Both the position numbers and the translations under genes were made by a program. From Ascidia mentula (lineage: Eukaryota > Chordata > Ascidiacea > Phlebobranchia > Ascidiidae), in contig OX387201.1 of assembly GCA_947561715.1 (NCBI GenBank), positions 21,156,001-21,220,000 on the forward strand: DNA of 64,000 bases. The letters are read 5' to 3'. Under the pieces are notes generated by a model. The model saw only the letters and a list, made by a program, of their open reading frames with translations. It did no database searches and had not been told where the DNA came from. Below are positions 37,196-38,443 of the stretch, piece after piece. The stretch's first letter is position 1. Every line of letters starts with the position of its first letter.

Positions 37196-38221
37196 AATAT
37201 GATCCTGGTATGTCTGGAGTAAACGTGACACAAACATGTTGTTTCACGAAGGACCTGAACTCTGTCTTCACCTGTGTTACGATTTGTTTAATGAAGACTC
37301 GTAATGGAGAAGCTAAACGCGCGCTCGACGTTTGGCGTCATAGCTGACAAACAAAATTAATTTGCGCTCTAAGTTCTAAGCAACTTTAAGGTAAAGTAAA
37401 CCAAGATTTTCGGACGTGTAGCGTCTCGCCCCACATATAATTTTCGATGACTAACACTTTTAATATGATGACGTATCGTTTTCAACCGTTTTTGCGCACG
37501 GATATCGAAGCACCACTCGTTCAAATCCAGTGCGAATTTAATTGCTTTCAATGGCAGACCGATGTTAACTGCGAGTTCTCTGTTATTTGAAGATTTGCTT
37601 GAACCCACACAACGCAAGTGGTAAATAAACAAGCCTACTATTCGTGGGTAAAACGATATTTTGTCTCATTCTGCAATTGTCGTTGTTGTAGTTGTTGCCA
37701 ACGCTAACCCCATGCTTTTAACAAATGGCGCTTTCTTGCTATACGAAAGCACAGCTTTAGCGAGCGATTTAACTTCTGTACAGATTACGAAATAAACCTT
37801 TGACTTTTCGTACTTAGCTGGGCTGGTTCCTCCAAGACCAACAAGCCACAGTTTTTGCGAGTGAGAAACCTTCAGCAAACAAAGGCAGTGCGCCACTTAC
37901 GTCACAACCACCGTCTGTGTATTGTTTACATTCCAAACAGTTTACGCTTTTGAGTGAGAAATTGCTTCAGTTGTATGGATTCACCAGTGTGTAACCAAGC
38001 ATGTCAAAGTGTGGCACACCACGCCTTACTTATTACGTCACAATATAAAGTAATCACTGCCTCAAACAATGTATGACTGATGGGAAAGGTTTTGTGACAA
38101 TGTTTTCTTTACCTACAATATCTTTCTGAAGCCGTGTGCTAAATATGAAAGCGACATTAAAACTTAATTTGCTTACGTCACCTGGACCGAAGTAGCGCCA
38201 AACAATACATATTTGGGTGCA

Positions 38222-38368
38222 AAATATTTGGAGATTATAATCTTGAAAATGAAAGCCAAAGCTAAAATGCTGTTATACATTAGTAAACGCTACTGATGAT
38301 GAACGCAGTTAGTGTTCGAAACGTTTACTAATGTATAACAGCATTTTAGCTTTGGCTTTCATTTTCAA
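38222..38368 (+). mobile_element. Short palindromic element with hammerhead-ribozyme-like core
   Basis: Two ~47-bp arms (38243-38289 and 38322-38368) are near-perfect reverse complements. The loop carries CTGATGA (38293-38299), a small stem GAACGC/GTGTTC with loop AGTTA, and GAAAC (38318-38322): the conserved hammerhead core. GTT follows GAAAC, and the sequence after it pairs with the 5' arm as stem I, as in the type I hammerheads of Penelope-like elements. A direct repeat AAACAATACATAT (38200-38212 and 38368-38380) flanks it, followed by near-matching TGGGTGCA and TGGTGCA. This looks like a retroposed non-autonomous element. Confidence 0.6.
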
Positions 38369-38443
38369 AACAATACATATTGGTGCACAATTATCAATAC
38401 CCCGACCATTGGAAAAATCACTTTGCATGATTCGGATTTCGAA

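What the first reader, a model, noticed from the sequence alone, without database searches (positions are those of the whole stretch)
38200..38380. Palindromic element with a well-formed type I hammerhead core and flanking direct repeat
A near-perfect ~47-bp stem frames CTGATGA, a 6-bp stem II with 5-nt loop, and GAAAC followed by GTT; the sequence after GTT pairs with the 5' arm as stem I. The 13-bp AAACAATACATAT flanks it. The layout matches the short-stem-III hammerheads of Penelope-like elements and retrozymes, but here in an element under 150 bp whose whole body is a hairpin. Two such elements in one window suggest a live non-autonomous family.
Basis: partly seen in the sequence, partly recalled or inferred. 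Interest (0 to 1): 0.75.

Follow-up and report, generated by a model that had tools for sequence, protein, structure and literature searches.

The report
Tiny inverted Penelope retrotransposon insertion
The hairpin is a very short, back-to-back copy of the end of a known kind of jumping gene (a Penelope-like retrotransposon) that carries a remnant of a self-cutting RNA motif, and comparing it with its relatives in the same genome gives a clue to how these elements insert themselves.

Summary
The hairpin is real: perfect 47-nt arms, a 32-nt loop with CTGATGA, stem II and GAAAC, and a 14-bp flanking direct repeat. It is not a self-contained hairpin or ribozyme family. It is a 154-bp insertion of the 3' end of a Penelope-like element (PLE; RT plus GIY-YIG endonuclease) whose core motif occurs 340 times in this 196-Mb genome. 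Two 5'-truncated ends are joined head to head: one has the 27-nt PLE tail, the other lacks it. The hammerhead is the minimal PLE type (no stem III, an extra U, no Rfam hit). Here its native stem I strand is lost and the arms bury the cut site, so poor or no cleavage is predicted.

A pattern across copies may be new. Of 22 head-to-head insertions with direct repeats of at least 10 bp (14 of them 12 bp), 20 are tailed/untailed, 2 tailed/other, none two of a kind; in the subset not chosen by similarity to this element it is 10 and 1 of 11. Single-sided copies use either end (5 tailed, 7 untailed). I infer two-sided target-primed reverse transcription from two RNA start sites, each used once. A second, decayed PLE insertion lies about 1.4 kb away.

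The parts
38200..38213 (.). left copy of the 14-bp target-site duplication AAACAATACATATT
   Evidence: 0 of 200 shuffles of the flank give a repeat as long
38368..38381 (.). right copy of the target-site duplication (overlaps the last A residues of the element end)
38214..38367 (.). the insertion: head-to-head inverted pair of PLE 3' ends (154 bp)
38215..38289 (-). antisense piece: PLE 3' end with tail (reference positions 236-310, 94.7%), inferred reverse-transcription start at ...TTTTGCACCC
38291..38369 (+). sense piece: hammerhead core plus arm, without tail (reference positions 205-283, 98.7%), inferred start at ...CATTTTCAAA
38243..38289 (.). left arm of the perfect 47-bp inverted repeat
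38322..38368 (.). right arm of the perfect 47-bp inverted repeat
38293..38325 (+). minimal PLE-type hammerhead core: CTGATGA, extra T, stem II GAACGC-AGTTA-GTGTTC, GAAAC, GTT; no stem III
   Evidence: no Rfam hammerhead hit (intact relative)
39727..39819 (-). second PLE insertion in the window, other family (97.8% to L066), 5'-truncated, untailed, core mutated (CAGAGGA..GAAAT); 13-bp duplication at 39714-39726 and 39823-39835
37245..43361 (.). host background: diverged tandem units of about 1.4 kb; the first insertion lies in one unit, sister units at 41660-41940 and 43060-43330 lack it

Best explanation
The feature is a young, extremely short insertion of a canonical (RT + GIY-YIG) Penelope-like retrotransposon. 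Shown: it consists of two 5'-truncated copies of the element's 3' end in head-to-head orientation, one with and one without the 27-nt tail, flanked by a 14-bp direct repeat. Inferred: the PLE endonuclease made a staggered cut of about 12 bp, and both 3'-OH ends primed reverse transcription of sense PLE RNA. One primed at the tail start site and the other at the untailed start site about 27 nt upstream. Each cDNA ran a short distance of its own and the two ends were joined, which leaves a palindrome whose loop is the length difference. The hammerhead motif is cargo from the PLE terminal repeat. In this copy the junction removed the native 5' strand of stem I and the long arms bury the GTT cut site, so I predict no efficient self-cleavage.
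For: Dispersed family: 103 BLAST matches (a lower bound, 40 of 708 candidates scored), 340 core matches with control 0, 360 tail matches with control 1. The motif lies downstream of GIY-YIG ORFs in L062 and L065, and the related ORF in L070 gives an RVT_1 hit. Termini are sharp. Of 32 minus/plus neighbours kept, 22 have a direct repeat of at least 10 bp (12 bp in 14 of the 22); 20 of the 22 are tailed/untailed, 2 tailed/other start, 0 tailed/tailed, 0 untailed/untailed. In the 11 of these 22 that come from loci chosen by the core motif alone, 10 are tailed/untailed and 1 tailed/other. Of 40 single ends, 12 have a repeat of at least 10 bp: 5 tailed, 7 untailed. The closest minus-to-plus pair among the 91 exact tails listed (of 360 counted) is 11.5 kb apart. 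A second GIY-YIG-linked family shows the same layout once (L066, 13-bp repeat). Independent biochemistry: PAc PLE protein cleaves and extends both strands, and the tail equals the sequence between two internal RT start sites (PMC11167929, section 3). Inverted pLTRs with an optional tail on one of them are described in Adineta vaga (PMC3846280, passages).
Against: Half of the 22 (including the window copy itself) come from loci ranked by similarity to the window element, which is itself tailed/untailed, so that half is biased towards the pattern; only the core-anchored half is free of this. Arms within one insertion differ by 2.8% against 5.5% between insertions (26 pairs with at least 30 shared nt, some without a clear direct repeat), so they may come from one RNA molecule or from copying of one strand, as a snap-back model would give. 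PAc in vitro showed no difference in start site between strands, so that work does not explain a one-of-each rule. Four of the 32 neighbours have repeats of only 5-6 bp, and 6 of the 28 with at least 8 bp rest on 8-9 bp, which shuffles match in up to 25 of 200 trials. No expression or transposition data.
Confidence: 0.8

Rival explanations
1. Same PLE insertion, but the palindrome arose by self-priming (snap-back) on one template, as suggested for Adineta vaga Penelope elements from an antisense template, not by two primed starts.
For: Arms of one insertion are more alike than arms of different insertions (2.8% vs 5.5%); self-priming is the published reading (PMC3846280, discussion).
Against: It does not predict one tailed and one untailed end (20 of 22, none of a kind; 10 of 11 in the core-anchored half), nor that the untailed end is also used alone in single-sided copies. 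The 5' match edges of the two halves differ by up to about 220 nt, within a 310-nt reference that caps the figure.
Confidence: 0.17
2. A live non-autonomous family of short hairpin elements with an active type I hammerhead.
For: Hammerhead-like core in hundreds of copies; target duplication; identical arms in the window copy.
Against: No shared hairpin ends among 22 insertions after two segmental duplicates with the same flanks were dropped; no stem III; no Rfam hit; stem I of this copy impaired and the cut site sequestered.
Confidence: 0.03
3. A MITE or other DNA transposon with terminal inverted repeats.
For: Inverted ends and a target duplication.
Against: Ends are asymmetric (tail on one side), single-sided 5'-truncated copies with direct repeats exist, and the termini belong to an RT/GIY-YIG element.
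Confidence: 0.01
4. The hairpin now acts as a host small-RNA source (miRNA or hairpin RNA).
For: Long near-perfect hairpin; sub-threshold matches to several unrelated miRNA families, some on both strands.
Against: Those matches are below every gathering score and are what a long hairpin would be expected to give; conservation of this locus was not tested.
Confidence: 0.04

Closest known systems
Endonuclease-containing Penelope-like elements, inverted-pLTR copies with optional tail (PMC3846280, passages and discussion; PAc element, PMC11167929, section 3)
   Same: RT and GIY-YIG ORFs, 5'-truncated copies, head-to-head inverted ends, tail of about 30 nt on one end, target duplication (8-10 bp in the A. 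vaga passages), hammerhead motif in the terminal repeat (PAc)
   Different: The insertion is reduced to 154 bp with no coding sequence; in this genome the tailed/untailed pairing looks strict, which I did not find stated as a rule in what I read
Minimal type I hammerhead motifs of PLEs (reviews PMC6155905 and PMC7761336, passages read; original papers not held)
   Same: Core, stem II, stem I, no helix III; from recall and inference, the GAAACGTT overlap could pair as ACGT between two molecules
   Different: One extra nucleotide before stem II (whether published motifs share it I could not check); in this copy the 5' strand of stem I was replaced by the inverted arm
Metazoan non-LTR retrozymes (PMC7229834, passages read)
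   Same: Small, non-coding, type I hammerhead core, target duplications longer than 4 bp
   Different: Retrozymes are direct tandem repeats with canonical type I hammerheads; this is an inverted pair of PLE ends

Membership tests
Endonuclease-containing Penelope-like element (as insertion) | termini shared with copies that encode RT and GIY-YIG endonuclease | tested here: met
   motif 150-180 nt downstream of the GIY-YIG ORF stop in L062/L065; GIY-YIG E 6e-8 (L062, L065), RVT_1 E 1.6e-10 (L070, which has the arm at one end); no single intact full-length copy was examined
Endonuclease-containing Penelope-like element (as insertion) | 5' truncation, inverted or direct terminal repeats, tail of about 30 nt on one end | tested here: met
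Endonuclease-containing Penelope-like element (as insertion) | target-site duplication | tested here: met
   14 bp in the window copy; mode 12 bp in the family
Minimal PLE-type hammerhead | CUGANGA, stem II, GAAAC, GUH in order, stem I in register | tested here: met
   one sequence from each of three (sub)families: 12 of 12 proximal stem I cells paired, changes on both sides at all 4 positions. Left out: a candidate at L093:67-90 with two such pairs by eye, and single copies with broken stem I. Window copy: 3 of 4, one by wobble
Minimal PLE-type hammerhead | RNA self-cleavage (as dimer or protein-assisted) | not testable with these tools
   no bench data
Canonical type I hammerhead (Rfam RF00163) | covariance-model match including helix III | tested here: not met
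   no match at E<=10 in the window element or in an intact relative; a different motif in the same genome gives 20.7 bits, below the gathering score of 34
Retrozyme | direct tandem or dimeric arrangement with canonical type I hammerheads | tested here: not met
   inverted arrangement, no stem III
Retrozyme | small circular RNA products | not testable with these tools
   no RNA data

The most novel reading that the evidence does not exclude
PLE integration is obligatorily asymmetric: whenever both sides of the staggered cut are primed, one side starts at the tail site and the other at the untailed site, never the same site twice. This would mean the two reverse transcription events are coupled (for example one RNA with two start sites held by a protein dimer, or the first cDNA masking the tail site). 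It would explain inverted pseudo-LTRs, head-to-head palindromes and single-ended tails with one mechanism, without antisense self-priming.
Probability: 0.45. Interest if true: 0.6.

Novelty: new member of a known kind. Interest (0 to 1): 0.4.

Why it matters
The window element is an ordinary by-product of a known retrotransposon class. Its sister copies are informative, though. PLE integration is still poorly understood, and hundreds of copies with readable ends give an in vivo record of which RNA start site was used on which side. The apparent one-of-each rule makes the long-noted tail and the inverted pseudo-LTRs directly testable with the purified PAc system.

Tried and rejected
Rfam over the window at gathering found only a tRNA; E-value mode on the element and on an intact relative gave no hammerhead. 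A whole-genome Rfam RF00163 search gave nothing, and its controls did not ring either, so it says little. Gathering-level Rfam on 9 loci gave only a tRNA. Covariation inside the main family is uninformative because the core is almost invariant, and the core loci were chosen by it; a comparison between subfamilies was used instead. The MAFFT alignment A1 misaligned the subfamilies and was not used. Fold z-scores of the isolated intact motif are unremarkable (z -0.17 and 0.20), which is no support for a stable monomer. A tandem GIY-YIG array (L073-L077) was checked as a further PLE and dropped: no hammerhead core found there and the ends not interpretable. A target motif after tailed ends, AA(G/A)TA, was seen (41 ends), but the order of the two cuts could not be derived. 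A relaxed genome count of all PLE-type cores did not complete. The host organism was not identified.

Full report
What is there. The window holds two perfect 47-nt inverted arms (38243-38289, 38322-38368) around a 32-nt loop. Twenty Markov shuffles of the window reach 11-17 nt at most, and the RNA fold has z -13.7. A direct repeat of 14 nt flanks it. The core by itself could be chance: 31 of 100 shuffles contain at least one match.

Copies elsewhere. The window is part of a 196-Mb genome in 79 contigs. The element region gave 103 matches, a lower bound because only 40 of 708 candidates were scored. The 31-nt core occurs 340 times with up to 3 mismatches, and 0 times for the reversed pattern. 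The tail 21-mer occurs 360 times with up to 2 mismatches, reversed control 1. The listed places lie on many contigs, so the copies are not confined to the array.

What the copies show. In sense orientation an intact unit reads CATTGTAGTA-CTGATGA-core-GAAAC-GTTTACTAATG, arm, CATTTTCAAA, and optionally a 27-nt tail GTTATAAACTCCAAATATTTTGCACCC. In L062 and L065 the motif lies about 150-180 nt downstream of the stop of an ORF with a GIY-YIG domain (E 6e-8 for both), on the same strand. A related ORF in L070, which also carries the arm, has a reverse transcriptase domain (E 1.6e-10). The unit is thus the 3' end of a canonical Penelope-like element, and its last 27 nt behave like the PLE tail.

Structure of the window insertion. 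The left piece is antisense, reference positions 236-310 with tail; the right piece is sense, 205-283 without tail; one base lies between them. The palindrome is the overlap of two unequally truncated ends, and the loop is the length difference. Sister tandem units lack the insertion and carry a single, diverged version of the target sequence near 41925 and 43320.

End statistics. I took all minus/plus neighbours that reach the arm: 34. Two were dropped as segmental duplicates, leaving 32; one more (C2:16736980) shares its right flank with C2:16852997 and is probably a further duplicate, but has no clear direct repeat and is outside the counts below. Twenty-eight have a direct repeat of 8 bp or more and 22 of 10 bp or more; 12 bp is the mode (14 of 28). 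Among the 22, 20 are tailed/untailed, 2 are tailed with another start (C67:2823604, C70:12451208), and none has two ends of one kind. Among the 28 it is 26 and 2. Of the 4 with repeats of 5-6 bp, 3 are tailed/untailed and 1 is unresolved. The similarity-chosen loci could favour the window's own pattern, so I recounted: of the 22, 11 come from core-anchored loci (10 tailed/untailed, 1 tailed/other) and 11, the window copy included, from the similarity search only (10 and 1). Of 40 single ends, 12 have a direct repeat of 10 bp or more on the far side: 5 tailed and 7 untailed, one of the latter enclosing a tandem pair. Both starts are therefore used. With equal odds for each end, 20 mixed of 20 has probability about 1e-6, and the 10 core-anchored ones about 1e-3. 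By coordinates alone, the nearest minus-to-plus pair among the 91 exact tails listed (of 360 counted) is 11.5 kb apart, whereas core pairs within 3 kb number 12 among the 100 places listed (compiled by eye). All 22 have different pairs of 5' match edges; these are BLAST edges on a 310-nt reference, not exact cDNA ends. A second GIY-YIG-linked family shows the same layout once: L066 has about 34 nt extra on one end only and a 13-bp direct repeat.

Mechanism. The PAc element of Anolis cleaves and extends both DNA strands in vitro, starts reverse transcription at two adjacent internal sites, and its genomic tail is the stretch between them (PMC11167929, section 3 read). The genomic record here fits a two-sided version: each 3' end of a staggered cut primes one cDNA, one from each start site. 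The published alternative for inverted pLTRs is self-priming on an antisense template (PMC3846280, discussion read). It explains palindromes but not the one-tail rule. Against a simple two-RNA model, arms within an insertion are more alike (2.8%) than between insertions (5.5%) (26 pairs), so one RNA, or RNAs from one source copy, is likely. PAc showed no strand difference in start site. Which start comes first is open.

The hammerhead. One sequence from each of three PLE (sub)families in this genome keeps a 4-bp proximal stem I in exact register (A-U U-A G-C A-U; A-U C-G G-C U-A; C-G C-G A-U A-U), with changes on both sides at all four positions (sequences, pairing). That supports a conserved hammerhead-like RNA at family level. 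Single copies with a broken stem I exist, and a weaker candidate at L093:67-90 was left out. It is the minimal PLE type without helix III (reviews PMC6155905 and PMC7761336, passages). An extra nucleotide before stem II is present; whether published PLE motifs share it I could not check. In the window copy 3 of 4 proximal positions pair, one of them a G-U wobble, with a C-C mismatch at the third, and GTT is inside the long hairpin. I predict little or no cleavage. In PAc the motif cleaved only with protein present and was not needed for insertion in vitro.

Second element. Window 39727-39819, minus strand, is 97.8% identical to L066, has a 13-bp duplication, no tail, a truncated 5' side, and a core changed at two letters (CAGAGGA for CTGAGGA, GAAAT for GAAAC).

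Novelty. PLE insertions with inverted terminal repeats, a tail and minimal hammerheads are known. I found no statement of a strict tailed/untailed pairing in the parts I read of PMC11167929, PMC3846280 and PMC8969392; some searches were searched as listings, and most of the papers listed there were not opened. The library lacks key older PLE papers. This is not proof of absence from print.

Noticed in passing
L003:235-285(-), L023:1908-1932(-), L035:2469-2493(-), L080:694-718(+), L090:2985-3009(-): A separate hammerhead-like family in the same genome; the L003 copy reads as having stem III and a canonical layout (GACC/GGTC stem II, ACAG/CTGT stem III), Rfam RF00163 20.7 bits (gathering 34); L035 gives RF00008 29.1 bits (gathering 48.5). 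Possibly a retrozyme.
   Followed up: partly
38446-38576: A second long imperfect inverted repeat (arms 37 nt, 86%) that lies in the host tandem unit; no hammerhead core matched there.
   Followed up: partly
41660-41940 and 43060-43330: Sister tandem units carry about 260 bp between GCCAGAC and GAGACAACATT that the unit with the hairpin lacks; flanking AGAC repeats suggest another small insertion.
   Followed up: no
33842-34360: Long inverted repeat (83% over 162 nt) that includes the tRNA-like hit at 34201-34274.
   Followed up: no
C67:6134028-6146916 (L073-L077): Near-identical 2.87-kb units with open frames of 559-892 aa around a weak GIY-YIG match, in a minus,minus,plus,plus,plus array; no hammerhead core found in these loci.
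   Followed up: partly
L025 (C1:18476498-18476898): A head-to-head PLE insertion whose centre is filled with a simple repeat of TACTAGTA / ATCAGTAC type, perhaps derived from the core sequence.
   Followed up: no
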